A program made the translations under genes and the position numbers. Positions 18,617-30,741 of a stretch of 64,000 nucleotides of DNA are shown piece after piece. The stretch is from Gluconobacter albidus. Lineage in GTDB: Bacteria > Pseudomonadota > Alphaproteobacteria > Acetobacterales > Acetobacteraceae. The DNA is taken from NCBI RefSeq assembly GCF_002723915.1, contig NZ_BEWL01000005.1:1-64000 (forward strand), given 5' to 3'. Position 1 is the first letter of the stretch; each line of letters opens with the position of its first letter. The notes beneath the pieces were generated by a model that ran no database searches, had not been told where the DNA came from, and was given only the letters and a program-made list of their open reading frames with translations.

Positions 18617-18691
18617 TGGGGTGTAGCCAAGCGGTAAGGCAGCGGATTTTGATTCCGCCACGCGGAGGTTCGAATCCTCCCGCCCCAGCCA
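18617..18691 (+). tRNA. tRNA-Gln (anticodon TTG)
   Basis: A complete cloverleaf can be drawn. Acceptor stem TGGGGTG pairs with CGCCCCA (one G-U). The anticodon stem GCGGA/TCCGC encloses loop TTTTGAT with anticodon TTG. The T arm is GGAGG-TTCGAAT-CCTCC. The discriminator is G and CCA is encoded. It is the insertion site of the mobile element that follows; the last 17 bases are duplicated at 30725-30741. Confidence 0.97.
18675..18691 (+). other. Left attachment site (attL core) within tRNA-Gln
   Basis: TCCTCCCGCCCCAGCCA, the 3' end of tRNA-Gln from the T arm to CCA, recurs at 30725-30741 with one mismatch (G to A at the eighth base). The tyrosine integrase gene begins 98 bp inward, the standard arrangement for tRNA-targeted elements. 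The integrated copy keeps the tRNA intact. Confidence 0.87.
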
Positions 18692-18745
18692 AACTCCGAT
18701 ATAAATCATTGATATCAAACAGATTTTATTCGGGTAAAAAATTGA

Positions 18746-18780
18746 GTTTTGGGACTTTTCTCCATTTTCGTCCCCAAAAC
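18746..18780. repeat. Inverted repeat near the left attachment site
   Basis: GTTTTGGGAC (18746-18755) faces GTCCCCAAAAC (18770-18780) across 14 bp, one base short of perfect. It lies between attL and the integrase start codon, where arm-type integrase or excisionase sites and the int promoter are expected. The motif TTTTGGGAC also occurs near 26999-27007 ahead of the helicase operon. Confidence 0.5.
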
Positions 18781-18788
18781 TGGCTCCA

Positions 18789-20423
18789 ATGCTCAAACGA
18801 AAAAATGGCTGTTACCACTTCCGCAGAGTAGTCCCTTCACATATTCGTGATGCTTTGGGTCAGACTGAAATCTGGCTCTCTCTAGGCACGCACAGGAAGA
18901 GAGACGCCACGTCCCGTGCGGGCATGATATATGGACAGGTCGAGAACCTGTTCTGTTTCCTGTCGGGTGGTGGTGCCTTGCCTGAAAAGTTTGACCTTAA
19001 GAATTATCTTCTGGAGATGGTGAAGCGCCACCCGTCTGATTTCAAAGAGGATTGGCTGGCAGGAGCCAGTGCTGGAATTGACGTAAAGAAAAAATATCTC
19101 TCAGGAGCCTCTGACAGATTCCTTCAGCAGTTCGTGCAGGACGTGGATGGCCGAAACGCTCACCTTCTGAACGAAATCCAGCGTCTGGGTGCAGAACTGG
19201 AAGCTGCCAAAGCAGCAGGCAATCATGAGCGGGAAGGTCAACTGTTAGCCCTGCTGGGTCAGGCCATCTCCAAGATACCCGATATGAGCCAGCAGGCTCC
19301 CGCTGCTCCTGTCATGCACCACCAGATTCCGCCAAAAATCTCCTCAGTACCCTTCAGAGACATCGCCAACAGGTATCTGGAAATTAAGAGGGCAAGCGTC
19401 TCCATAGAGACCTATAACCACTTTGTAGCCGCATGCAGTCTGTTTGGCAGATTCACTGACACCACCCGTGAGCTGCATACTTTTACCCGTAAAGACTCAT
19501 CAGCTTTCATCAACGTCTTGAGACAGATGCCCAAATACTGGGGGAAATCTCCCAAAGAAGAAACGATGACTCTGGGAGAAATTGTCGCATACCACCGGAC
19601 GCGAAATCCTGGATACGTGACTTTATCAACAGACACGATGAGCCGACACATCAACAAGATGGCCGAAATCTGGAGTTATGCCATCTCGATTGGAGAACTG
19701 GACGACAAGAAGGAATACGATATCTGGTCGAAGCATATGGTAACGGCCATTAACGAACAGACCGTGGACAGAAGGCCGTTCAAGGAAACAGAGTTGGCGG
19801 CTCTCATGGAAACCCTGTGGAAGCCACGGATTAATATCAACACAGTCAGACAGATTATATCCGTTGCGACCTATACAGGCATGAGGCTGGAAGAAATTTG
19901 CAGACTTCGCCCATGCGATATTCATGAAGTTGAGGGTGTTCTCTGTTTCGATATCCGGATTCATCGAGATGCGGATGGGAAGGAAATCTGGAACCCAAAA
20001 TCAGAGGCCGGTGAACGTCTCATTCCCGTTCATTCTTATATCAAGAACTCTACCGGATTGATTGAACGCGCCAAAAACTGCGAGAAATCCAAAAGAGACC
20101 GGATATTTTTCGACCTTCCTTATGCTGCCTCCACTAATAAATATGGAGCGGCTTTCTCTCAAAGGTTTAGCAAGTTCAAGAAAGATGCGGGTCTGCCTCG
20201 TGAGACAACATTTCACAGTTTCCGACATCTGTTCCGAACCATGCTTGGTCACCGAAGCGATGGACTGAACTACCCGGTAGAGTGGATTGACCAGATTCTG
20301 GGCCATGAAACAGCCGGAATGGGAAGCCATTACAATGCAGGGACAACACCATCGAACCTGATGAAAGTCGTTCGAACAGTGAAGTTCGAAAGCTGGGACC
20401 CCATGGAAATAAAAAACCGATAA
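18789..20423 (+). CDS. Tyrosine-recombinase integrase
   Basis: 544 residues. The N-terminus KRKNGCYHFRRVVPSHIRD is the arm-binding start seen in DUF6538-type integrases. A SAM-like core-binding domain spans about residues 190-310. The catalytic domain has the first arginine in YTGMRLEEICRLRPCDI, HxxR as H476-R479 in FHSFRHLFR, H506 in LGHETAG, and nucleophile Y515 in GSHYN. All catalytic positions look intact, so the enzyme is probably active. It would catalyse integration and excision at tRNA-Gln. The gene is 98 bp inside attL and reads into the element, typical of tRNA-site islands. Confidence 0.93.
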   Translation: MLKRKNGCYHFRRVVPSHIRDALGQTEIWLSLGTHRKRDATSRAGMIYGQVENLFCFLSGGGALPEKFDLKNYLLEMVKRHPSDFKEDWLAGASAGIDVKKKYLSGASDRFLQQFVQDVDGRNAHLLNEIQRLGAELEAAKAAGNHEREGQLLALLGQAISKIPDMSQQAPAAPVMHHQIPPKISSVPFRDIANRYLEIKRASVSIETYNHFVAACSLFGRFTDTTRELHTFTRKDSSAFINVLRQMPKYWGKSPKEETMTLGEIVAYHRTRNPGYVTLSTDTMSRHINKMAEIWSYAISIGELDDKKEYDIWSKHMVTAINEQTVDRRPFKETELAALMETLWKPRININTVRQIISVATYTGMRLEEICRLRPCDIHEVEGVLCFDIRIHRDADGKEIWNPKSEAGERLIPVHSYIKNSTGLIERAKNCEKSKRDRIFFDLPYAASTNKYGAAFSQRFSKFKKDAGLPRETTFHSFRHLFRTMLGHRSDGLNYPVEWIDQILGHETAGMGSHYNAGTTPSNLMKVVRTVKFESWDPMEIKNR

Positions 20424-20518
20424 CGCTGCACTGAAACAAAACTGCATTTCTGTCTGCTATACTTCCCTCTCAGGACTGGAAAACATCCCGGAGACCAGTT
20501 TGGAGAAGGAAGTACGAC

Positions 20519-20611
20519 ATGTATCTACGACAGAACCATTATAGACCATTCTGCCTCTCTCCACGATTACACGGGGAAAGATGCAGGATGATGTGCAGTA
20601 TGACGAGATAG
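20519..20611 (+). CDS. Possible 30-residue leader peptide overlapping the rep start
   Basis: A short ORF beginning MYLRQNHYRPFCLSPRLHGE. It is preceded by a better ribosome-binding site (GGAGAAGGAAG, 7 nt upstream) than the rep gene has, and it overlaps the rep start by 31 bp in another frame. Such leaders can couple or limit translation of replication initiators. No similarity is claimed; it may be chance. Confidence 0.22.
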   Translation: MYLRQNHYRPFCLSPRLHGERCRMMCSMTR

Positions 20612-21936
20612 ACCACTGGATAAGAACCACCAGACCCGATGTCTGGCGCAGGCTGTTACCCCTGCATGGGATTTACAAGAACGAAATTACCCGCAAGGTC
20701 GCAGAAAACTGCGCGTTTCTTGCCTGTTTCGAAGAGACCGAACAGGTCGCCATGGAAGTCGTGGACTGGGTTGAAACCCTATCCGATGACCTTGTTTCCG
20801 GCTTTGACCTTCTCTCCCAGTCCTACAGTGAACTGAAGCAGACCCAGCGAATCACGGGACAGGTTCTCACACGCAAAGCCAACAGGTTACGCCGCAATCT
20901 CCGCAGGGTTCTGGAACTCTCCCCCGAACAGGACAGGGTGCAGCAGGCCTTTGATGACGAGAAGCTGGCTGCCAGCAAATCGTTCATCGTGGTTCCAGAC
21001 AGACAGAATCCGGACACTGGCCTGTCAGCGCATACGCTGCGTCAGTGGCAGCTTAGAAAACACTATGCCGTCACTTTGGCGATAGCCGACAGCCTGCATG
21101 ATTTTGCTACCGGATTTCTGGGCTATCAGGGGCTGTTCCTGACCCTCACGTTACCCGGAGAGTATCACGCCTGTTCCTATGAAGAGGCCAAGGCAGAAAT
21201 CTCCAGACGCTGGAAAACCGTCAGACGCAAGGCACGGGAGAAAGATGTCCTCCTGCTGGGCATGACTGCGCTCGAACTCCAGGACGACGAAACACCCCAC
21301 TATCATATCCAGCTCTACATCGACCCAACTCAGAGAGTATGGCTTGAGGAGCAGATACTTCAGGCATTTCCGAACGAGATTGAACGACAGGCGGAAGCCA
21401 TCAAAGACATCCGGGATGTGCTGTCTGTCTCTCTTTATCTCACCAAGGACTACGGCAAGCCCGAGACCAACCTGACCTTCATTGGCCTGACACGCGACAT
21501 CCGAGCCCGCTACACGAATGTCTACGCAGGTAAGCGATACGGAACCCTGTCCGATGCCAGGATTGCCACAGCTCACAGACTGATAAAGCGGAAAGCCTTT
21601 GGCGGAACAGCACTGCTTCTGATGCGGGGATTTTCCGATGAGAGAGTAAACCGAATATCAGCCCGACATCCCGATTTCCATTATGTCCGCACAGGGATGC
21701 CAAGGGTTCTGACAGCTCTGGTGCATACAATGCATTTCAGGACAGTGAAGGATTTCAATGCATCCCCTGTCAGCCAGACCTCCATGGTCAGACAGAAGGT
21801 TTCAGCAGGGAAAACAGGGGTTCAGTCTCTCTTTGTTCCAACTTGTTTAAATGACTACCAAGAAGGTGTCCCGGCTTCAGCCTGTGGATGGGAGCGGCTT
21901 CAGTCCAGAGGGCAACCTCCTCCTTTTCAGGGCTGA
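20581..21936 (+). CDS. HUH-endonuclease replication initiator (phage GPA-like)
   Basis: 451 residues. Three rolling-circle motifs appear in order. Motif I is LFLTLTLPGEYHAC (residues 185-198). Motif II, the metal-binding HUH, is H240-Y241-H242 in PHYHIQLY. Motif III is SLYLTKDYGK, with tyrosines 286 and 291 as candidate nucleophiles. The TLTLPxxYH wording and paired tyrosines resemble the gene A/GPA family of phage and plasmid initiators. It would nick the circularised element and start rolling-circle replication. The last 25 residues look unlike folded protein and overlap the next small ORF. Immediately downstream lie the mobilization genes. Confidence 0.8.
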   Translation: MQDDVQYDEIDHWIRTTRPDVWRRLLPLHGIYKNEITRKVAENCAFLACFEETEQVAMEVVDWVETLSDDLVSGFDLLSQSYSELKQTQRITGQVLTRKANRLRRNLRRVLELSPEQDRVQQAFDDEKLAASKSFIVVPDRQNPDTGLSAHTLRQWQLRKHYAVTLAIADSLHDFATGFLGYQGLFLTLTLPGEYHACSYEEAKAEISRRWKTVRRKAREKDVLLLGMTALELQDDETPHYHIQLYIDPTQRVWLEEQILQAFPNEIERQAEAIKDIRDVLSVSLYLTKDYGKPETNLTFIGLTRDIRARYTNVYAGKRYGTLSDARIATAHRLIKRKAFGGTALLLMRGFSDERVNRISARHPDFHYVRTGMPRVLTALVHTMHFRTVKDFNASPVSQTSMVRQKVSAGKTGVQSLFVPTCLNDYQEGVPASACGWERLQSRGQPPPFQG

Positions 21937-22081
21937 AAGTGAAACCCTGACAGCCTCCACCGACCAGACCCAGATTGGCGCAAAAACCAGAGAAATCCCC
22001 AAGAGGCGCGAAATCTTCCCTGAACCGGAACGTGTCTGTCAGACCTGTCTCACCCGTTCCCTGCACAGAGTGGTGTCATAA
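21851..22081 (+). CDS. Small hypothetical protein overlapping the rep end
   Basis: 76 residues in a different frame from rep, overlapping its last 86 bp and ending 25 nt before mobC. The sequence has no recognised motif; it ends with CQTCLTRSLHRVVS. No convincing ribosome-binding site precedes it. It may be a real small element gene or simply an open frame across the rep-mobC junction, which is also a plausible oriT location. Confidence 0.25.
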   Translation: MTTKKVSRLQPVDGSGFSPEGNLLLFRAESETLTASTDQTQIGAKTREIPKRREIFPEPERVCQTCLTRSLHRVVS

Positions 22082-22106
22082 TCCTCCTCAGAAATGAGGA
22101 CCAACC

Positions 22107-22409
22107 ATGAAAACGGAGACATTGCATATCCGGGTGAAACCGGAAGAACGGGAAAGACTGAAAAGTACAGCAGGAACACGCAGACTGTCTGTCTGGTGCA
22201 GGAAAGTTCTGCTGAACGAACTGGCAGGAGGGGCTTCAATTGCAGAGGAGCTTCTAGCCTTGCGTCGTGAGCTGTCTGCCATCGGGAACAACCTGAATCA
22301 GATAGCCAGACGACTGAATACAGGGGAGCAGGTCGATATCGCTGCCCTCCCTGCTGACATCGACACCCTGAAAGCCCGCATCAACAGGGTTCTGAGGCGG
22401 GTGCGATGA
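22107..22409 (+). CDS. mobC: MobC-like relaxosome accessory protein
   Basis: 100 residues. The N-terminus LHIRVKPEERERLKSTAG is a ribbon-helix-helix-like start, and LLALRRELSAIGNNLNQIARRLNTG matches the MobC signature. MobC proteins bind oriT and help the relaxase melt the nick region. AGGACC precedes the ATG, and a small CCTCA-GAAA-TGAGG hairpin lies at 22086-22099. The stop overlaps the relaxase start as ATGA, so the two are coupled. Confidence 0.85.
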   Translation: MKTETLHIRVKPEERERLKSTAGTRRLSVWCRKVLLNELAGGASIAEELLALRRELSAIGNNLNQIARRLNTGEQVDIAALPADIDTLKARINRVLRRVR

Positions 22410-24184
22410 TACTCAAGAGCAACCCCATCAAAACAGCTTCCGGGTCAGGAGCCATTTTCCACCATCTGGTCGAGAAGACTGACGAGAACGAGCATATTCT
22501 GCTCTGGAAAGGCAGACGTCAGGATGTCGATGACTGTATCGCTGATGCAGCAGCGTTTCATCGCGTGAATGCCGTTCAGCACTTCCAGGTCTCTTCGAAA
22601 GAGAAGCTGTCCGACGAACAGTTTGCTGACTGCATCACCATGCTCGCGAAAGAGTTCGGATTTCAGGCCTCGGATGTGTGTCTTGCCGTCATTCACACCA
22701 AGACCCGCCACGATGGCAAAGCAGACAATCGCCACTGCCAGTTTCTGGTTCGCACGACGCATGCCGAGACCGGCAAGGTTCTCGATGTCTCGCATCGCTA
22801 TGAACGTCAGGAAAAAGTCGCCCGTCTGTTCGAGCTGAAACACGGTCTTGAGCTGACCAAAGGGCGTCACAACGTGGCAGTGTATCACGCTGTTCCAGAG
22901 GAATTTCGGGACCGTCTGAAAATTCTGTGCGAAGGACCGCTCCCGAACTCCTGCCTGTCAGACCCGCAATCGAAACTGTCCCAGAGACAGGGAGCCAGTC
23001 CGTTCGACATCAAATACGAGGTCCGGGAGCTGTTCTCCCGTAGCCAGAGCTGGCAGGCATTTGAACAGACCCTCACAGAGCGTGGCTGGTCTCTGGAAGC
23101 GGGACAGAAGAAACCGGATGTTCTCATTCTGAAGGACGAAAACGGGGTCTTTGTGGGGTCTCTGGCTCGTTTGCTGGGCCTGAAGAAAGCCGAGCTTCAG
23201 CAACTCAGAACAGACCCGGAGGTCATGAAGAAAAAGGGAGTAGCCAGCCCTGGCCCTCGTGACACACGAGACCCAACTGGCAAGGGGGAAACCCCCGTTG
23301 ACCCCCATAGCGAGAGAGCTGAGGATTCCGATAGCAGGTCCGACACACAGGGGGAGTCCAGCGCTTCCTCCACATCTGGAAAGTATCCAGCACCTGAGAA
23401 GAGAGGACCAAAAACCCCTCACTGGCTGGGACCCATTGCTCCGCTTCTGCACTCGTCCCGCTCGACAATTACGGAGGGGATGTCACACGCGGAAATCCAG
23501 TCGGTCATCGACTTCAACGCTCAGGAAGCGGAAAGAGATGACCAGCTCCGGGAGCTACTGCACGACCAGAAACGCTCTGCGGCCCTGCTGACCGAAATCC
23601 TCACCAGCTTTCAAAGCCAGTGGCAGACCCTGCCTCCTGAACCCTATCCCGACCCGAAAAGTCGCGATGCATCGGTTCTTCGCAAAACGCAGGAACAGAG
23701 ACTGGAGCCAGCCCGTCAGGCGTGGAAACAGGCCAAAGAAAAAGCGAGTGTCTGGAATCTCTGGAACGGAGCTGACATCCAAAGAGCCAGAGCCGCGTTC
23801 GAGGCTCTTCTGCATCGCTATGGCTATGACCGTCACGAGGTCGGCAAACTCGACCTGCTGGACGATGACAACTTTGCCTATGCCGTGAACTGGATGGCGG
23901 AACGTGTCGTGTCAGGTCGGGAGCGTCAGCACAGGGCGTGGCAGAAGACCCCCGAGGTTCGCAGATACCTGACAGCGAAAGCCGAGATGGAGAGACTTGT
24001 GGCTCATCTGGACGCCACAAAGGACGTGGGACTGTTGCTCTTGGCGAGAACCAACCCGGAGGAGGCCCTGAGACGTCTGGCAGCACTGAAGGAAAACGAG
24101 AGACACGCCCAGCCAGTCATGAAAATTCAATTTCCTGACCAGCCCCGGCAAAAGCGTTCTCCCGTTCAGACCTTCTCGCTTTAA
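22406..24184 (+). CDS. Mobilization relaxase (MobA/VirD2-like)
   Basis: 592 residues. The N-terminal 180 residues carry relaxase-type blocks: AVQHFQVSSKEKLSDEQFADC (motif with conserved H and S), VCLAVIHTKTR and the DNRHCQFLVRTTHAETGKVLD metal-binding region, where HCQ replaces the common HxH. The middle (about residues 280-350) is low-complexity, and the C-terminal half is helical and charged. It would nick oriT and lead the strand into a helper's conjugation pore. The assignment rests on these motifs plus the ATGA overlap with mobC; the catalytic tyrosine was not located with confidence. Its TAA and that of the convergent gene overlap at TTAA. Confidence 0.78.
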   Translation: MILKSNPIKTASGSGAIFHHLVEKTDENEHILLWKGRRQDVDDCIADAAAFHRVNAVQHFQVSSKEKLSDEQFADCITMLAKEFGFQASDVCLAVIHTKTRHDGKADNRHCQFLVRTTHAETGKVLDVSHRYERQEKVARLFELKHGLELTKGRHNVAVYHAVPEEFRDRLKILCEGPLPNSCLSDPQSKLSQRQGASPFDIKYEVRELFSRSQSWQAFEQTLTERGWSLEAGQKKPDVLILKDENGVFVGSLARLLGLKKAELQQLRTDPEVMKKKGVASPGPRDTRDPTGKGETPVDPHSERAEDSDSRSDTQGESSASSTSGKYPAPEKRGPKTPHWLGPIAPLLHSSRSTITEGMSHAEIQSVIDFNAQEAERDDQLRELLHDQKRSAALLTEILTSFQSQWQTLPPEPYPDPKSRDASVLRKTQEQRLEPARQAWKQAKEKASVWNLWNGADIQRARAAFEALLHRYGYDRHEVGKLDLLDDDNFAYAVNWMAERVVSGRERQHRAWQKTPEVRRYLTAKAEMERLVAHLDATKDVGLLLLARTNPEEALRRLAALKENERHAQPVMKIQFPDQPRQKRSPVQTFSL

Positions 24185-25053
24185 AGCGCTGCCTTGACCG
24201 TACTGCCTGAGAGCTTGGCATCAACAGAGCCATTCATCTGCTTGAACAGTTCAGCATACATGACCTCTTCAGCCCGTAAATCTTCCAGTGTCAGACGGAG
24301 GCCGGAGACATTGGAGAGGTTTTCACCGACCGGAATCACCGTCACCGAGAGATAGGCCATCTCATGGGGTGTCGTGTAGGTCAGCGGTTCATTCGCTTCC
24401 GCAGTCGTCCCGGTCTGGGTCGTCACGACCTTTCCATCCGGTCCGGCATAGGCTGTCCCGGAGGGTGTGCCATAGCGGGTCATGGGCTGAAGATGCAGAC
24501 CGTATTTGGACGCGATATCCGCCTGAAGGTCCGCGTAATGCGGGGACGCTTCCATGGGAAAGGACGCAGAGCGTTCAATCTTCGTAACCACCGCCCCCAT
24601 GACAGGAATGGACAGGCGCACAGTCAGGGTGTCCTGTCCCTTCTGACAGGTCAGGGTGCTGGGGAAATACTGCGTGTTGACCCCGACCCCCTTGTAGGTG
24701 GTGGACAGATAGGTGTTCGTCACCTGAGGAGCTTTGCCGCAATAGGACGTCATGGTGCTGGTGGCATCAGCCTGCGTCATGCCAAGCTTAAGGCCAAGAA
24801 TGCTGTCCTGCCCGAACACGTTGTCGAGGGGCTGATAGGTTACGGTCTGCTTGAGATGCACCCCGCCATTGTCGGGAGGCGTCTGTGGCTGGGACGGTGG
24901 CACAGACAGTCCCAGAAGATGGGCACAGGCCGGTGTGATGAGTCCCTGATTATGCGCCAGCAGACACTGCGTCAGGCTCTGGGCATGGCCGGAGAGTGGA
25001 AGACTGCCAACCGCAAACATGAGGGCGAAAGCCGGAAGGAAAGACCTGCTCAT
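24181..25053 (-). CDS. Secreted protein of unknown function (element cargo)
   Basis: 290 residues from the ATG at 25053. A Sec signal peptide (MSRSFLPAFALMFAVGSLPL, cleavage after GHAQS) leads a periplasmic or exported domain with four cysteines (TQCLLAH, ITPACAH, SYCGKAP, LTCQKGQ), which could form two disulfides. The region ILGLKLGMTQADATSTM resembles a BamE/SmpA-like helix start, but no family is assigned. The start overlaps the stop of the lipoprotein gene by ATGA. It is the third gene of a minus-strand trio convergent with the relaxase. DsbB at 43.5 kb would support disulfide formation in the host. Confidence 0.72.
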   Translation of the reverse strand: MSRSFLPAFALMFAVGSLPLSGHAQSLTQCLLAHNQGLITPACAHLLGLSVPPSQPQTPPDNGGVHLKQTVTYQPLDNVFGQDSILGLKLGMTQADATSTMTSYCGKAPQVTNTYLSTTYKGVGVNTQYFPSTLTCQKGQDTLTVRLSIPVMGAVVTKIERSASFPMEASPHYADLQADIASKYGLHLQPMTRYGTPSGTAYAGPDGKVVTTQTGTTAEANEPLTYTTPHEMAYLSVTVIPVGENLSNVSGLRLTLEDLRAEEVMYAELFKQMNGSVDAKLSGSTVKAAL

Positions 25054-25442
25054 GATTGCTGCCTCAGTCCGCTGCCGCCAGTATTCTGGCTGGTGGTGAA
25101 ACTGTGATGGACCACGATGTCCTTGTGGAGTGTCACCTTGAGGATATTGCTTTTGGCGCTGTCTCTGGTTCCCAGAACGCCAAGCCCTACAACGTCCTGC
25201 ACCATGGACAGACCATCCTGCCGGGTGGACGAATACACATACACCCACTGCTCATTGCCGTTCTCGAAGGACGTTTCGGACGGCTCGCCATAGAGTTGAC
25301 GGAGCTGGGACGAGGTTGTCACACCATCGCGAATGGAGCGGTCGATATCCGCAGCCGTGACACTCTTCAGGGACGCATTGCCAGCCGAGGAGCAGGCACT
25401 CAGACAGCCCAGCACAACAGCCAGAACCGCTGTTTTCATCAT
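25050..25442 (-). CDS. Lipoprotein with a BamE-like fold (element cargo)
   Basis: 130 residues. Lipoprotein signal MMKTAVLAVVLGCLSAC with lipobox LSAC puts the acylated cysteine at about residue 17. The mature segment SIRDGVTTSSQLRQLYGEPSETSFENGNEQWVYVYS has the helix-strand pattern of the SmpA/BamE group, which includes many small lipoproteins beyond BamE itself. It ends HHSFTTSQNTGGSGLRQQS. ATG codons at 25442 and 25439 are both possible. It overlaps the following secreted protein by 4 nt and follows the membrane-protein gene after 43 nt. A role in envelope modification on behalf of the element is inference. Confidence 0.75.
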   Translation of the reverse strand: MMKTAVLAVVLGCLSACSSAGNASLKSVTAADIDRSIRDGVTTSSQLRQLYGEPSETSFENGNEQWVYVYSSTRQDGLSMVQDVVGLGVLGTRDSAKSNILKVTLHKDIVVHHSFTTSQNTGGSGLRQQS

Positions 25443-25485
25443 CTTCAAGACGGTTTTCCTTTTTGATGGAGAGGCAGAACCCACG

Positions 25486-26154
25486 TCACAGGCTCTCAAG
25501 AAAGCGGGGGTTGCTGTTGATGGTCGTGCTGAGGGTCTGGATGGCCTGTCGCTTGTTCTGAAACAGACGCCACAGAACGCGCAGAAACCCGATGACCACG
25601 AACAGAGCGCCCAACAGGATGACAGCGACCATGACCCAGGTCGCCACAAGCCAAAGCGGATTGGTGCCCTGACGGGTGTAATGACCAACCAGATTCCGGA
25701 AGATGTCTGCCCCCTTCAGAATCAGGGCAAGGACAAGCAGAACCATCAGGGCGCGGGCGGTCATCCTGCCAACGGAGGCAAACAGAACCGACCACGGAAG
25801 GGTGTTATGGACGATTGAGGAGTGACCGAGAGACAGGTTGCGGATGTAGAGCATCCGTCCAACTTTTTCCCCCTTCACATTGCCCCAGACGAGACAGACC
25901 TGCTGGCCCTCTCTCACCTGACACGGCACATCCACCTGAAACTGGCGACCGTCAGACGCGACAACCCAGAACTTCTGGTAGTGACGGGTAGAGAAAGTTT
26001 TCTCGGCAGGAATATCCACAAACAGCGTATCTCCGACCTTCATGCTGCTCGCGGGAGGCCGGTACGTGATGTCTTCCGACCACTGGCGGACGCTGTGAAC
26101 CGTTCCCCGGATTCCGTGAAGCCAGAAGGGTTTTCCGCAGAGTTCAATATCCAT
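25486..26154 (-). CDS. Bitopic membrane protein of unknown function (element cargo)
   Basis: 222 residues from the ATG at 26154; an upstream ATG at 26271 would give 261. The N-terminal 130 residues are soluble, with a short beta-rich module (MKVGDTLFVDIPAEKTFSTR, QVDVPCQVREGQQVCLVWG). Two strong membrane spans follow at about residues 140-160 (ARALMVLLVLALILKG) and 175-200 (LWLVATWVMVAVILLGALFV). No catalytic motif was seen. First gene of the trio with the lipoprotein and secreted protein. An envelope complex made by all three is plausible but unproven. Confidence 0.65.
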   Translation of the reverse strand: MDIELCGKPFWLHGIRGTVHSVRQWSEDITYRPPASSMKVGDTLFVDIPAEKTFSTRHYQKFWVVASDGRQFQVDVPCQVREGQQVCLVWGNVKGEKVGRMLYIRNLSLGHSSIVHNTLPWSVLFASVGRMTARALMVLLVLALILKGADIFRNLVGHYTRQGTNPLWLVATWVMVAVILLGALFVVIGFLRVLWRLFQNKRQAIQTLSTTINSNPRFLESL

Positions 26155-26355
26155 GCCGTGCCCGAAACCTTCCGAAAAACAGGGGAGAAACATGACCCAC
26201 CCTGTTATCGGGAGAGCGGCATCCAGTTCCCTGTCCGTGCTGAATTGCTCTGCAACATATCCCGTAAACACCTGATTTTGTTATGATTCAGGGAGGAGAC
26301 CGGAAGGGCCTGAAAGGGTCCCACAAAGGTGTCCCGGAACAACAGGACAGGGATT

Positions 26356-26916
26356 ATGGGAAAATATGGCTATGCACGCGTAAGCACGTCACGACAGCAG
26401 ACGGACAATCAGGTCACGGACCTTCTGCGGGAGGGCGTGCCGGAAACGCAGATTGTGACGGAAACAGTGTCAGGGGCGACCGCGTGGAAATCGCGTCCGG
26501 CCCTGAAGAAACTGGTCAGACGGCTTCAGGCCGGGGACACGCTGACGGTGGTAAAGCTCGACCGTCTGGGGCGTAATGCCCTGGATGTCCTGACCCTCAT
26601 CGACGTGCTGAAAAAACGGGAGATTTCTGTCAGGATTCTCAATCTGGGGATTGATACCGCAGGCGCTGGCGGCAAGCTGTTCCTGCTGCTTCTGGCGGGA
26701 TTTGCGGAGTTTGAACGCAACATCATCCGCGAGCGGGTGCTGTCAGGGCTGGAGACGGCCAAAGCGAAAGGCATCCGCCTCGGAAGAAAGCCGACACTGA
26801 CAGAAGACGACATCGCTCAGGCGCGTCGTCTCAAGGCTCAGGGACTGTCTGCCAGAGAAGTGGCGAAACTCCTGCACGTCTCCAAGATGACGGCCTGGCG
26901 AGCCATGAACTCCTGA
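26356..26916 (+). CDS. Serine recombinase (resolvase/invertase family), first copy
   Basis: 186 residues from the ATG at 26356. The catalytic serine is in YGYARVSTSRQQTDNQ (S10). KLDRLGRNALDVL and GFAEFERNIIRERV are further resolvase blocks. The C-terminal helix-turn-helix is LSAREVAKLLHVSKMTAWRAM. This is the small Tn3-resolvase/DNA-invertase type. Its base composition is like the rest of the element and unlike the AT-rich operon that follows. It may resolve multimers of the element or belong to an older insertion. Confidence 0.92.
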   Translation: MGKYGYARVSTSRQQTDNQVTDLLREGVPETQIVTETVSGATAWKSRPALKKLVRRLQAGDTLTVVKLDRLGRNALDVLTLIDVLKKREISVRILNLGIDTAGAGGKLFLLLLAGFAEFERNIIRERVLSGLETAKAKGIRLGRKPTLTEDDIAQARRLKAQGLSAREVAKLLHVSKMTAWRAMNS

Positions 26917-27029
26917 AATCCGTCCCGCAATCCCTGTCCCAGAATTGCAGAACCGGACTCTCAGCCATGCAAAATCACCCTATTCCCAAATCAGGTGCTT
27001 TTGGGACGGAAATCTCATCGTATTATTCA

Positions 27030-27066
27030 ATGACGGAAACAGGTTTAATATATATAATAATAAACC
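27030..27066 (+). promoter_or_regulatory. Promoter with overlapping palindrome upstream of the helicase operon
   Basis: A sigma70-like pair ATGACG (27030-27035) and TATAAT (27053-27058) is separated by 17 bp. The -10 box sits inside an inverted repeat with arms GGTTTA (27042-27047) and TAAACC (27061-27066). Transcription would start just before the ATG at 27098. The layout suggests repressor control of the operon; the repressor is not identified. Confidence 0.5.
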
Positions 27067-27097
27067 GAATTACGAAACCTGACAGAGAATTATAGAA

Positions 27098-29215
27098 ATG
27101 CCAATAAAATACATACCAACAAAATTAGACGATTCATCGAACCCCATCACGTCTCAGATAATAAAAGAAATTACTCAAAAAACACTATTTAGTGCGGCAG
27201 ATGAAGGTGTTTTATATTACGGATGGCCAAGATTTACAGACTATGATTCTATAAAGCACTTTGCAGACCTTACTCTGGTTTCTGCAAAAAGAGGATTAGT
27301 ACTTATACGCGTACTTCACTCCGATGAAGAACGCCTCATCTCAGATGAAAAACAAAGTATATTGCAGGTAGCCGCTAGCGCGATTGGTTTATTAATAAAA
27401 AGTAGCCTTCTGCGAAAGCGAACAGCACTATTTTTTGATGTAATTCCGGTAATTTATGCGTCTGGGGTCGCAGATAATCCCGAAGCAGAGGTACCTACAT
27501 TCGGGTCTTTACAAAATCTCTTTCGCTTTCTCGAAGCAATTGAGGACCAAGAAATACCCAATAACGCACTAGATGAAATTCAATCTATCCTCGAAGGGCC
27601 CAAAGCTCTAGGCGCCCCTACAAAAAGAAGTATAAAAAATCCTTCAACGGAAAAAATTGCCAACTCTTTAAAAAAACTTGAAGAAGAAATAGCAAAATTT
27701 GATACCAAACAAAGGCAGGTAGCATTAACGGCAATAGCCGGACCTCAGAGAATTAGAGGTCTTGCCGGGTCTGGTAAGACAGTAATACTTGCAATGAAGG
27801 CCGCAATTACACACTTGGATAATCCAGATGCTAAAATTTTAGTTACTTATTATACTAGAAGTCTGCACGATAGTCTGCGAAGAATGATTACGAAATTTGT
27901 CAGGCATTTTGGCGATGGAGAGCCCAACTGGGAAAACATCCATGTCTATCACGGGTGGGGACGTCAAAATGTACCCGGAACATACCGCACAGCAGCCCTA
28001 CGAGCAGGCTTGTCGCCAATGGACTTCGGTTCTGCCCAAAGGAATGCGCGAGGCGGGGAGAGTGGATTCAGCTACGTATGTCGCCATCTCGTAGCGAGCG
28101 AACGTATTGAGCCTTACTACGACATAACCTTAATTGATGAGGGTCAAGATTTCCCTCCAAGCTTCTACCAACTCTGCTTTTATCTGACTAAAGGAGAACG
28201 AGATGCCAAGCAGATAATTTGGGCTTACGATGAACTCCAAGACGTTTTTGACGTCCGTGTCCGTACCCCGGAAGAGCTCTTCGGTACTGATACTGACGGC
28301 AAACCTCGTATTTCCTTGAGCCGCTCGTGCCCTCAAGAGATGGAAACAAACGATTTTGTTCTACCCAAGTGTTACCGAAATCAGCGAAATACACTTGTTC
28401 TAGCCCATGCGGTCGGGTTTGGTTTATATGGTACACCAGTTCAAATGCTTCAAAATCAGAAGCACTGGGAAGACGTCGGGTATGAATTACTCCGCGGAAA
28501 TCTAAATCAAGGTTCCTCCGTTGTTATTACACGTCCACAAAAAAATAGTCCAACTACCTTGGATACACCCGACGATACACCTCTTATCGAAGTGAAGGGT
28601 TTTAACGAAGTCGGACATGAGGTGGAGTACTGCGTAACAGAAATACAAAAATTCATATCTGAAGGCGGACTACTCCCTGAAGATATAATGGTAATATCGG
28701 TCGATGACAGAGTGGCCAGGGACTACTTAAACATAACCGCACAAAAATTGTCAGATATTGGATATAAAACCAATAATATTATTGCGGATAGGTACAGTGA
28801 ACCTCCATTTAAAATTGAAGGAAAAATAACTCTATCAACCGTTTATCGAGCGAAAGGAAATGAAGCTGCCGTAGTTTTCGTTTTAGGATGCGACGCAGTA
28901 TCCCTAGAATCTCGAACAGGAAGAAATAGATTATTTACAGCATTCACAAGAACAAAAGGATGGTTAAGGATTACTGGATTTGGCTCACGATTTTCTGCAT
29001 TAGAAAAAGAAATACTTTCAGCCCTGAGTGATACTCCTGAAATGAAATTTATAATGCCAGATATTAATAAAATCGATTTAATACAAAGAGACCTATCCGA
29101 AAAAGATGCGAGACTTCAGCGCGCAGAGAGTGAAATGCAACGCATAAAGGAGAGCCTGAATCTTTCAGATGAAGACATGAAGAATATTTTTGCAAAGAAA
29201 GATAAATTAAAATGA
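27098..29215 (+). CDS. UvrD-like superfamily 1 helicase/ATPase, candidate defence protein
   Basis: 705 residues, encoded in DNA much richer in A+T than the flanks. SF1 helicase motifs are in order: Walker A GLAGSGKT (residues 221-228), Walker B ITLIDEGQD (343-351), a motif III-like IIWAYDELQDVFD, LPKCYRNQ (about 422-429), motif V ITLSTVYRAKGNEA and motif VI RNRLFTAFTRTKG. The N-terminal 120 residues (ADEGVLYYGWP...DLTLVSAKRGLVLIRV) recall a NERD/PD-(D/E)xK fold, but the usual ExK is degenerate. A coiled coil ends the protein. It overlaps the next gene by ATGA. Helicase activity is well supported; defence is inference from context. Confidence 0.82.
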   Translation: MPIKYIPTKLDDSSNPITSQIIKEITQKTLFSAADEGVLYYGWPRFTDYDSIKHFADLTLVSAKRGLVLIRVLHSDEERLISDEKQSILQVAASAIGLLIKSSLLRKRTALFFDVIPVIYASGVADNPEAEVPTFGSLQNLFRFLEAIEDQEIPNNALDEIQSILEGPKALGAPTKRSIKNPSTEKIANSLKKLEEEIAKFDTKQRQVALTAIAGPQRIRGLAGSGKTVILAMKAAITHLDNPDAKILVTYYTRSLHDSLRRMITKFVRHFGDGEPNWENIHVYHGWGRQNVPGTYRTAALRAGLSPMDFGSAQRNARGGESGFSYVCRHLVASERIEPYYDITLIDEGQDFPPSFYQLCFYLTKGERDAKQIIWAYDELQDVFDVRVRTPEELFGTDTDGKPRISLSRSCPQEMETNDFVLPKCYRNQRNTLVLAHAVGFGLYGTPVQMLQNQKHWEDVGYELLRGNLNQGSSVVITRPQKNSPTTLDTPDDTPLIEVKGFNEVGHEVEYCVTEIQKFISEGGLLPEDIMVISVDDRVARDYLNITAQKLSDIGYKTNNIIADRYSEPPFKIEGKITLSTVYRAKGNEAAVVFVLGCDAVSLESRTGRNRLFTAFTRTKGWLRITGFGSRFSALEKEILSALSDTPEMKFIMPDINKIDLIQRDLSEKDARLQRAESEMQRIKESLNLSDEDMKNIFAKKDKLK

Positions 29216-29916
29216 AAGAAAGAGATTTTTCAAAAGAAATTCGGAACGCTTGGTCTTTGGTGGATAAGAAACTCGAAATAGGACGTTCAGCTATATGCTT
29301 GAACTCCCTCGCTATCGACGCGGCCGTCAGAGATGTTTTTTTATCCGAAGAATCATCCTACGCTGATATATATAGATGTGCTTTGAGTAGGTCTTCATAT
29401 AATTTTATCTTAAAAGATTATTCCTATTTTCAATTTACTTGGAATTCATCCGATGATTGGCGTCTTGCTTTTTTTCCAAATCCATGGCTGGCGGGTAATC
29501 AAACAGCCCTTCAGTCTCTCGAAGAATGGGAGACTATGGAGTCCGAAGGAATTCTGGCAGATGAAGACGTATCGGCACTACTTGATGATATGCCCTATAT
29601 TTCGGCGGTACCTCCAATTAGATTCGAATATTCAAGAAATCAATATAAGGAAATTAGACATCCTTGCGCTCACTTCCATATAGGGCGCCATACTGAGAAT
29701 AGATGGTCATCCTCGTTACTAATAGGGCCAGAGGCATTCGTTTCACTCATTTCTAGCCAGTATTACGCTACAGAATGGAGCGCACTGAGCCGTTTTTCTT
29801 CAGAATTTTCAGAATATTGTATAGATGAAAAATTTATGGAGATAGTTTCAAATCTCAAATTCTGTCCGGATTTCTCCGAAAACGAAAAAAGATTGTTCCA
29901 TTTTGGAAAAGGTTAG
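29212..29916 (+). CDS. DUF2290-like protein partnered with the helicase
   Basis: 234 residues, AT-rich like its partner. The central IRFEYSRNQYKEIRHPCAHFHIGRH is the DUF2290-type pattern (FEY...HPxxHxHxG), and a C-terminal SLISSQYYATEW follows. No catalytic function is established for that family. The start overlaps the helicase stop by ATGA, so the two products are made together and may form a complex. The conserved histidines in HPCAHFHIGRH could bind metal; this is speculation. The family call is from memory of the motif and should be confirmed. A hairpin lies 10 bp after the stop. Confidence 0.62.
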   Translation: MKERDFSKEIRNAWSLVDKKLEIGRSAICLNSLAIDAAVRDVFLSEESSYADIYRCALSRSSYNFILKDYSYFQFTWNSSDDWRLAFFPNPWLAGNQTALQSLEEWETMESEGILADEDVSALLDDMPYISAVPPIRFEYSRNQYKEIRHPCAHFHIGRHTENRWSSSLLIGPEAFVSLISSQYYATEWSALSRFSSEFSEYCIDEKFMEIVSNLKFCPDFSENEKRLFHFGKG

Positions 29917-29926
29917 TAAAATTGAG

Positions 29927-29966
29927 TATAATACCGCCATAGATTGAGATTTGTGGCGGTATTATA
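29927..29966. repeat. 13-bp inverted repeat between the helicase operon and the second resolvase
   Basis: Perfect arms TATAATACCGCCA (29927-29939) and TGGCGGTATTATA (29954-29966) are separated by 14 bp. A partial third copy, TAACCGCCATAAA, follows at 29991-30003, and CTCCGCCAAAATTATA is just beyond. Resolvase res sites consist of such repeated half-sites next to the resolvase gene, so this may be the recombination or operator site of the recombinase at 30032. It could also terminate the helicase operon, though no U-tract is present. Confidence 0.6.
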
Positions 29967-30031
29967 GAACCGCAGAAAACAGCCAGAAAATAACCGCCAT
30001 AAATCTCCGCCAAAATTATAAGGAGAATTAT

Positions 30032-30589
30032 ATGAAATACGGTTATTGCAGAGTGTCCACAGTAGGACAGGATTTGAAGGAACAGGAAGACGCCCTAATG
30101 GCTCTTGGAGTTCCAAAAGCGAATATCTTCAAGGAAAAGATTTCAGGTGTCATCAGGTCAGATGACAGACCTCAATTCGGGAAGCTTCTGAAAAAGATTC
30201 AGGCCGGGGATGAGCTGGTCGTGATGAAGCTCGACCGACTTGGAAGGTCTACTCTCGATATCCTGACAGTCATCCAGAACCTGAGAGGTCAGGGAATTGC
30301 CATCACTATTGAGGGAGTGGGGACCATCAGGGATGACATGATGGGAAGCCTTACTATGAACCTCCTGGCGTCCTTTGCAGAGTTCGAGCGTGCTCTGATT
30401 ATCGACCGGACCCAGTCAGGCAGGAAGCGAGCCATGGCCAATGGTGTCAGGATGGGAAGAAAGGAGAAGCTTTCTCCCCAAGCTCAGAATGCCATCAAGC
30501 GACGCTATGGGAGCGAGACCGGGAAAGCCTTAGCCAACGAGTATGGCGTTGGCTTGAGGACAATCCAGCGAATAGCTTCCGCAGCATGA
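30032..30589 (+). CDS. Serine recombinase (resolvase/invertase family), second copy
   Basis: 185 residues from the ATG at 30032, which has a strong AAGGAGAA upstream. The catalytic serine is S9 in YGYCRVSTVGQDLKEQ. KLDRLGRSTLDIL and SFAEFERALIIDRTQSG are the other conserved blocks. The C-terminal helix-turn-helix is GKALANEYGVGLRTIQRIAS. It differs substantially from the copy at 26356, so the two are not recent duplicates. Lies 136 bp before attR. Confidence 0.92.
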   Translation: MKYGYCRVSTVGQDLKEQEDALMALGVPKANIFKEKISGVIRSDDRPQFGKLLKKIQAGDELVVMKLDRLGRSTLDILTVIQNLRGQGIAITIEGVGTIRDDMMGSLTMNLLASFAEFERALIIDRTQSGRKRAMANGVRMGRKEKLSPQAQNAIKRRYGSETGKALANEYGVGLRTIQRIASAA

Positions 30590-30626
30590 TGCAAAACGGA
30601 TTGCAAAACAGCCCAGATAAGCTATC

Positions 30627-30662
30627 CTCGTCTCCGTAGTTATCTCCAAAGTCGTCTCCAAA
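30627..30662 (+). repeat. Three tandem 12-bp repeats near the right attachment site
   Basis: CTCGTCTCCGTA (30627-30638), GTTATCTCCAAA (30639-30650) and GTCGTCTCCAAA (30651-30662) sit head to tail, sharing the core TCTCC. They are about 60 bp inside attR. Short direct repeats here are typical of arm-type integrase or excisionase binding sites. No protein-coding gene is evident between 30590 and 30724. Confidence 0.55.
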
Positions 30663-30724
30663 CTTGGCTGTTTTTCTCGACCTAACTGCTTGATTTTATT
30701 GAGACATCGGCTTTTTTGGCTAAT

Positions 30725-30741
30725 TCCTCCCACCCCAGCCA
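30725..30741 (+). other. Right attachment site (attR core)
   Basis: TCCTCCCACCCCAGCCA matches the 3' end of tRNA-Gln at 18675-18691 in 16 of 17 positions. It marks the end of the element; the host HU gene stop begins 9 bp further on. The single mismatch shows which copy is the incoming one: the tRNA copy keeps the base that pairs in the acceptor stem. Confidence 0.85.

What the first reader, a model, noticed from the sequence alone, without database searches (positions are those of the whole stretch)
27098..29916. AT-rich helicase + DUF2290-like two-gene operon, candidate antiphage defence system
Seen: two genes overlapping by ATGA, with composition far more AT-rich than everything around them, carried as cargo in a mobile element and bracketed by two serine recombinases. 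The first is an SF1 helicase with complete Walker A/B and motifs V-VI and an N-terminal region recalling a degenerate NERD/nuclease fold. The second matches the DUF2290 pattern (FEY...HPCAHFHIG). Known: many defence systems are helicase plus partner pairs on such elements. Inference: this pair is a defence system or an element-maintenance module; I do not know a named system with this exact composition.
Basis: partly seen in the sequence, partly recalled or inferred. Interest (0 to 1): 0.8.

Follow-up and report, generated by a model that had tools for sequence, protein, structure and literature searches.

The report
Known phage-defence pair in swap slot
The two genes are a known bacterial anti-phage gene pair (helicase plus DUF2290 protein), and in this acetic-acid bacterium they sit in a sharply bounded slot of a mobile element where related elements carry other, often defensive, genes.

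Summary
Window 27098-29215 encodes a 705-aa SF1 helicase and 29212-29916 a 234-aa DUF2290 protein, overlapping by ATGA. Both match PADLOC's Helicase and DUF2290 models, so this is the named "Helicase + DUF2290" system. A member was reported to inhibit phage T7 (PMC9122126, passages). The defence reading is supported; "no named system" is wrong. DUF2290 follows the helicase in 90 of 99 helicase-anchored loci; 7 of the 9 misses end within 250 nt of the helicase.

The helicase keeps its SF1 motifs, but its NERD-like N-terminal region lacks the catalytic ExK (0 of 73) that two DUF2290-free relatives keep. I infer that the helicase senses foreign replicating DNA and DUF2290 is the effector; its chemistry is unknown.

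Outside the given coordinates: the pair is cargo of a 12-kb integrative mobilizable element in tRNA-Gln (four empty sites). Its cargo slot has base-precise edges. Fourteen related slots hold 13 different cargoes, and 8 of the 14 match defence models: restriction-modification twice, Thoeris, PARIS, Lamassu-like, PDC-M53, Ppl-like and this pair.

The parts
27098..29215 (+). SF1 helicase of the Helicase + DUF2290 system, 705 aa; SF1 core about residues 200-650, N-terminal NERD-like region without the ExK
   Evidence: (PADLOC Helicase E 1.1e-138)
29212..29916 (+). DUF2290 protein, 234 aa; R137, H150, H154, R164, F176 invariant in 87 sequences, D69 in 86
27009..29926 (.). cargo cassette: the stretch that differs between related elements; 2918 bp, 40.3% G+C
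26329..26916 (+). serine recombinase 1 (195 aa, GTG start as listed), left of the slot
26983..27006 (.). inverted repeat TTCCCAAA...TTTTGGGA ending 2 nt before the left slot edge (27008/27009)
29927..29966 (.). inverted repeat with 18-nt arms that begins at the right slot edge
30032..30589 (+). serine recombinase 2 (185 aa), right of the slot
18692..30741 (.). integrative mobilizable element, 12,050 bp, in tRNA-Gln (18617-18691); att repeat 18675-18691 / 30725-30741
18789..20423 (+). tyrosine recombinase (integrase) of the element
   Evidence: Phage_integrase E 2.4e-11
20581..21936 (+). replication-type protein (REP_ORF2-G2P)
   Evidence: E 4.6e-7
22107..24184 (+). mobilization genes: MobC/NikA-like (22107-22409) and relaxase (22406-24184)

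Best explanation
This is a Helicase + DUF2290 anti-phage system carried as the exchangeable cargo of a tRNA-Gln integrative mobilizable element in Gluconobacter. Proposed working: the SF1 helicase binds or moves along DNA structures made when phage (or some plasmid) DNA replicates. That event releases or activates the DUF2290 partner, the effector, which damages nucleic acid and stops the infection. Shown here: identity of both proteins, conserved pairing, an intact helicase core, lost NERD catalytic motif, an invariant R/H/H/R set in DUF2290, the element, the empty sites and the swap slot. Inferred: that the helicase senses, that DUF2290 is the effector, and that the effector is a nuclease. 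My odds: about 0.95 for membership, 0.9 for the element and slot, 0.4 for the sensor/effector mechanism as stated.
For: PADLOC Helicase E 1.1e-138 and DUF2290 E 1.7e-19. DUF2290 directly downstream in 90 of 99 helicase-anchored loci; 7 of the 9 misses end 0-247 nt after the helicase. Distances of the two proteins go together over 71 pairs (Mantel r 0.83, 0 of 1000 permutations as high). SF1 residues 73 of 73, ExK at the NERD place 0 of 73, while two NERD helicases without DUF2290 keep it: the nuclease role seems to have left the helicase. DUF2290 has R137, H150, H154, R164 in 87 of 87 and D69 in 86, as expected of an active site. T7 inhibition by a member (PMC9122126 passages). Loss of the helicase PA1372 removes the cost and the SOS response caused by plasmid pNUK73 in P. 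aeruginosa PAO1 (PMC4410645 passages); PMC11637435 (passage) assigns PA1372 with PA1371 to this system.
Against: The DUF2290 model (mean pLDDT 95) has no Foldseek match at E 0.001 or better in the PDB (best 0.94) or the viral library (best 0.50), so nothing in the fold search says nuclease. In the pNUK73 work the helicase raised rep expression, and its loss did not relieve four other plasmids, so it is no general plasmid sensor. Mantel correlation also follows from shared ancestry. The helicase profile was built from DUF2290-linked helicases and only the best 80 of 523 genome hits were kept, which favours finding the pair. L056 and L057 have room but no DUF2290 was found; the partner looks broken in L010 (split in two) and short in L092 (73 aa).
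Confidence: 0.85

Rival explanations
1. DUF2290 is an RNA-targeting toxin related to TumE (DUF6516): the helicase acts like an antitoxin/sensor and infection frees DUF2290 to stop translation.
For: Same order of motifs by eye (DG, RLxY, RxD, HxH, PxxF). The profile alignment picks out the RYD...HxHIG stretch. TumE is also the downstream gene of a pair and inhibits protein synthesis, with an RNase activity proposed but unproven (PMC10584680 passages). TumE also had no confident PDB match (same passages).
Against: hhalign probability 1.1-1.5%, P 0.034-0.048; 5 of 100 column-shuffled controls score as high. Cutting out the DUF2290 loop, a choice made after seeing the data, gives 2 and 3 of 100, and global mode gives 44 of 100. 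No match of the model in the viral structure library.
Confidence: 0.2
2. The complex works as a DNA nuclease in the manner of Gabija or Hachiman: the helicase finds damaged or replicating DNA and DUF2290 cuts DNA.
For: Two-gene SF1/SF2-type helicase plus effector plan; Hachiman's HamB senses DNA damage and frees the nuclease HamA (PMC12278908, abstract in the listing). Weak GajB matches of the helicase (E 4.3e-7).
Against: DUF2290 matches no nuclease family in Pfam (87 members scanned) and no nuclease fold in the PDB.
Confidence: 0.25
3. The pair serves the element's own maintenance or transfer, not defence.
For: It lies within a mobilizable element and the helicase PA1372 is tied to plasmid rep expression.
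Against: Related elements with the same backbone carry quite different cargo in the slot, and the pair is also found on unrelated plasmids, inside a BREX cluster and beside restriction-modification genes.
Confidence: 0.05
4. The slot edges are precise only because one ancestral insertion was later replaced by ordinary homologous recombination in the conserved flanks, with no role for the two recombinases.
For: Recombinases and flanks are 73-98% alike between elements, enough for homologous exchange between the closer ones.
Against: Thirteen cargoes without detectable DNA similarity all begin at the same base; exchange in the flanks moves existing cassettes but does not by itself make new cargo with the same edges.
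Confidence: 0.45

Closest known systems
Helicase + DUF2290 (Rst_HelicaseDUF2290; Rousset et al. 2022)
   Same: Both proteins, gene order, overlap, carriage on mobile elements in hotspots.
   Different: Carried in an integrative mobilizable element slot between serine recombinases rather than a P4-like satellite or the prophage hotspots of that paper; DUF2290 only 16-37% identical to the 12 others.
PA1372/PA1371 of Pseudomonas aeruginosa PAO1
   Same: Assigned to this system by PMC11637435 (passage); low G+C and mobile surroundings (PMC4410645 passages).
   Different: Known for a plasmid fitness cost, not for phage defence, in the passages seen; I did not compare the sequences.
NERD-domain SF1 helicases (e.g. 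Haloarcula L262, Deinococcus L263)
   Same: 27-30% identical over the whole length.
   Different: ExK kept, no DUF2290 next to them in the two inspected.
Gabija (GajA + GajB)
   Same: SF1 helicase plus partner plan; weak GajB match.
   Different: Partner is DUF2290, not the GajA ATPase/TOPRIM protein.
TumE-TumA toxin-antitoxin
   Same: Possible shared motif order with DUF2290; downstream gene position.
   Different: Profile similarity not beyond chance.
Defence hotspots of P2-like phages and P4-like satellites
   Same: A fixed place of a mobile element that holds different defence systems.
   Different: Here the edges are base-precise inverted repeats, each beside a serine recombinase gene.

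Membership tests
Helicase + DUF2290 system | helicase matching the system's helicase model | tested here: met
   PDLC03002 E 1.1e-138 over residues 13-689
Helicase + DUF2290 system | adjacent DUF2290 protein | tested here: met
   PF10053 E 1.5e-16; PDLC02998 E 1.7e-19; ATGA overlap
Helicase + DUF2290 system | protects against phage | not testable with these tools
   reported for another member against T7 (PMC9122126 passages)
NERD-helicase nuclease | PD-(D/E)xK-type catalytic ExK in the N-terminal domain | tested here: not met
   E at the place in 0 of 73, ExK 0 of 73; E.K elsewhere in the stretch in 6 of 73; Pfam NERD in 0 of 11
Gabija | GajA partner | tested here: not met
   partner is DUF2290; GajB-like score of the helicase far below its own family
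HEPN ribonuclease | all-helical fold with conserved RX4-6H | tested here: not met
   model mixes helices and strands; R149 of RHPCAH in only 13 of 87
TumE toxin (PF20126) | significant profile similarity | tested here: inconclusive
   5 of 100 shuffles as high; 2-3 of 100 after a post-hoc cut, 44 of 100 in global mode
Integrative and mobilizable element | integrase, relaxase, att repeat, empty site | tested here: met
Integrative and mobilizable element | actual excision and transfer | not testable with these tools
   needs cells

The most novel reading that the evidence does not exclude
The element carries a purpose-built exchange slot: two serine recombinases with their own inverted-repeat sites at the slot edges capture and swap defence cassettes with single-base precision, a new platform for shuffling antiviral genes, and Helicase + DUF2290 is one of its cassettes. 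In addition DUF2290 is a new effector enzyme that took over from the helicase's dead NERD nuclease.
Probability: 0.3. Interest if true: 0.75.

Novelty: new member of a known kind. Interest (0 to 1): 0.45.

Why it matters
The gene pair itself is a known system of unknown mechanism; this work gives a testable reading (dead NERD in the helicase, five invariant residues in DUF2290 as a target for mutants). The larger interest lies around it. A slot with identical edges and 13 different cargoes in 12 Acetobacteraceae genomes would be a natural trap for finding new defence systems (five of the 13 cargoes match no PADLOC model), and it makes the question of how defence genes are exchanged experimentally accessible in harmless acetic-acid bacteria.

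Tried and rejected
Rejected: (1) HEPN reading of RHPCAH in DUF2290: wrong fold class, R149 not conserved. (2) TumE homology as an established fact: controls do not support it; kept as a lead. (3) Gabija membership: wrong partner. (4) Schlafen kinship of the helicase: human SLFN11/SLFN14 rank first in Foldseek (E 9.2e-17), but TM-scores are only 0.31-0.42, close to UvrD's (0.38); 50 of 1639 rows were shown. One of 10 relatives has a sub-threshold Pfam SLFN-g3_helicase match (E 3.3e-4). I draw nothing from it.

Dropped before counts: of the places, L170 (G364) and, fetched, L190 (G149) share too little to fix a slot edge; the weaker places G295 and G316 were not fetched. L189 (G378) shares only 42 nt of the left repeat and is not counted. 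Right edges could not be fixed for L161, L163 and L164, so right-edge figures rest on 11 of 14 slots (10 in the identity figures, L169 left out as a near copy of L162). A4 holds the window plus 72 of the 88 helicases listed; A3 holds the window plus all 86 DUF2290 proteins listed there. L022 and L095 are the same DNA, so 99 helicase-anchored loci are at most 98 distinct. Not every cargo ORF was scanned with PADLOC.

Gave nothing: first genome scan with DUF2290 alone, tandem alignment of A4 to a NERD family in Pfam, TumE in the PDB, DUF2290 profile in the PDB (best E 1.5), promoter/terminator scan (10 against 7.5 +/- 2.9 expected).

Full report
Observation. The window encodes a 705-aa helicase at 27098-29215 and a 234-aa protein at 29212-29916, overlapping by ATGA. 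Pfam names UvrD_C_2, UvrD-helicase and DUF2290. The stretch is 40.3% G+C against 54.2% in the element backbone and about 60% outside. Serine recombinases lie on both sides.

What it is. PADLOC's Helicase (E 1.1e-138) and DUF2290 (E 1.7e-19) models match. The system is in print: Rousset et al. 2022 report a helicase with a DUF2290 protein among two systems that specifically inhibit phage T7 (PMC9122126, passages), and DefenseFinder lists it as Rst Helicase+DUF2290 (PMC12278908, passage). A search of the library for DUF2290 lists 8 papers; I saw passages of four of them, and none gives a mechanism for this pair. PMC10952713 says the role of the helicase domains was not explored (passage). The other four were seen only in the listing.

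Pairing. DUF2290 lies directly downstream of the helicase in 104 of 113 loci. Some of these were found by DUF2290 itself; among the 99 helicase-anchored loci L015-L113 it is 90. Seven of the nine misses end 0-247 nt after the helicase; L056 and L057 have room and no match. The helicase profile came from DUF2290-linked helicases and the best 80 of 523 genome hits were kept, so this count favours the pair. Of 14 plasmid regions viewed, 12 hold the pair (one, L006, by its ORFs, as no genes were annotated; one, L010, with DUF2290 split in two) and two NERD helicases lack DUF2290. Neighbours include a BREX cluster, restriction-modification genes, an abortive infection protein and toxin-antitoxin genes. 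The family is sporadic: 4 of 397 genomes of the host's family, 8 of 299 of its phylum.

Host. Genome G218, of the window's genus, holds a contig whose DNA lies within L019, Gluconobacter thailandicus. The window is therefore Gluconobacter (inference from the tool's genus label).

Anatomy and mechanism. SF1 residues of Walker A, Walker B, motif V and motif VI are kept in 73 of 73 helicases; the NERD-place glutamate is kept in 0 of 73 and ExK in 0 of 73, with an E.K elsewhere in the stretch in 6. Two related helicases without DUF2290, annotated as nuclease-related, read IECK and IEVK there. DUF2290 has R137, H150, H154, R164 and F176 in 87 of 87 sequences and D69 in 86. Its model is confident (mean pLDDT 95) and unlike any solved structure at E 0.001 or viral model. 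The helicase model (pLDDT 92) resembles SF1 helicases. I infer that the nuclease work passed from the NERD domain to DUF2290. Independent support that the helicase acts on replicating foreign DNA comes from PAO1: inactivating PA1372 removes the fitness cost and SOS response caused by plasmid pNUK73, though not the cost of four other plasmids (PMC4410645, passages); PMC11637435 assigns PA1372 and PA1371 to this system (passage).

TumE lead. DUF2290 and the translation-blocking toxin TumE (PMC10584680, passages) share a motif order by eye. The test is weak: hhalign P 0.034 and 0.048 with 5 of 100 shuffles as high; after cutting out a loop, chosen post hoc, 2 and 3 of 100, and 44 of 100 in global mode.

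Element. tRNA-Gln at 18617-18691, integrase, replication-type protein, MobC and relaxase follow. The tRNA's last 17 nt recur with one mismatch at 30725-30741. Of 12 relatives fetched from the genus, four have the tRNA followed at once by the right flank (L128, L129, L132, L135), three hold a related element (L127, L136, L137) and five hold other sequence. So the element is 18692-30741.

Slot. In relatives the backbone, recombinase 1 and, mostly, recombinase 2 are kept, but the cargo differs. Over 13 elements mean pairwise identity falls from 0.93 to 0.33 at the left edge and, over 10, rises from 0.34 to 0.87 at the right edge. The common left end is ...GGTG(T/C)TT(T/C)TG(G/A)GAC; the right end begins TATAATACCGCCATAGATTG in most. 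Of 14 slots in 12 genomes, only L162 and L169 share cargo DNA. PADLOC matches at E 0.01 or better: window; L137 NotI-type restriction-modification, L163 Thoeris ThsA/ThsB, L164 Lamassu-like LmuB with an LmuA-like hydrolase, L166 PDC-M53A/B, L167 SacI-type restriction-modification, L168 Ppl-like; L161 PARIS AriA/AriB. No match: L159 (HATPase), L160 (ParA-like), L165, L188, and L162/L169 (M23 peptidase). That is 8 of 14 slots, or 8 of 13 cargoes. Controls: 0 of 10 chromosomal ORFs of the window (some may not be genes), and 1 of 8 backbone proteins, a weak MobC match (E 0.0075). PADLOC's ATPase and methylase models are broad, so L168 and the restriction-modification calls lean on partial or common domains.

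How the slot works is open. Precise edges beside inverted repeats and recombinases suggest site-specific exchange; homologous exchange in the flanks is the rival. Two searches of the paper library for such a slot brought no description of it in the listings; that is a narrow search.

Verdict. Membership is about 0.95 certain, the element and slot 0.9, the mechanism 0.4. The pair is a new member of a known kind; the slot is the more interesting part.

Noticed in passing
window 26983-27008 and 29927-29966; L137, L159-L169, L188: Base-precise cargo slot between two serine recombinases with 13 different cargoes in 14 related slots.
   Followed up: yes
window 21873-22106; L127 5377-7106, L136 5370-6889, L137 5370-6886: Second variable place: between the replication-type gene and mobC three related elements carry about 1.5-1.7 kb that the window lacks.
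   Followed up: no
tRNA-Gln 18617-18691; L130, L131, L133, L134, L138: The tRNA-Gln site is a general integration place: five relatives have other sequence right after the tRNA, three of them alike.
   Followed up: partly
L189 2097-2138: A different element shares 42 nt of the left slot repeat directly before a 1024-aa ORF (phosphorylase-like with STAND-type domain; PADLOC PDC-M60C E 2.4e-21).
   Followed up: partly
window 27043-27067: Palindrome GGTTTA...TAAACC before the helicase, overlapping a promoter-like TATAAT (27030-27058); promoter matches are not above chance.
   Followed up: no
L007: The pair sits on an 11.4-kb Acinetobacter nosocomialis plasmid that also has tet(39) and BrnTA.
   Followed up: no
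helicase model mc89702b4b2bc: Human Schlafen 11 and 14 rank above UvrD in the fold search, at low TM-scores.
   Followed up: partly
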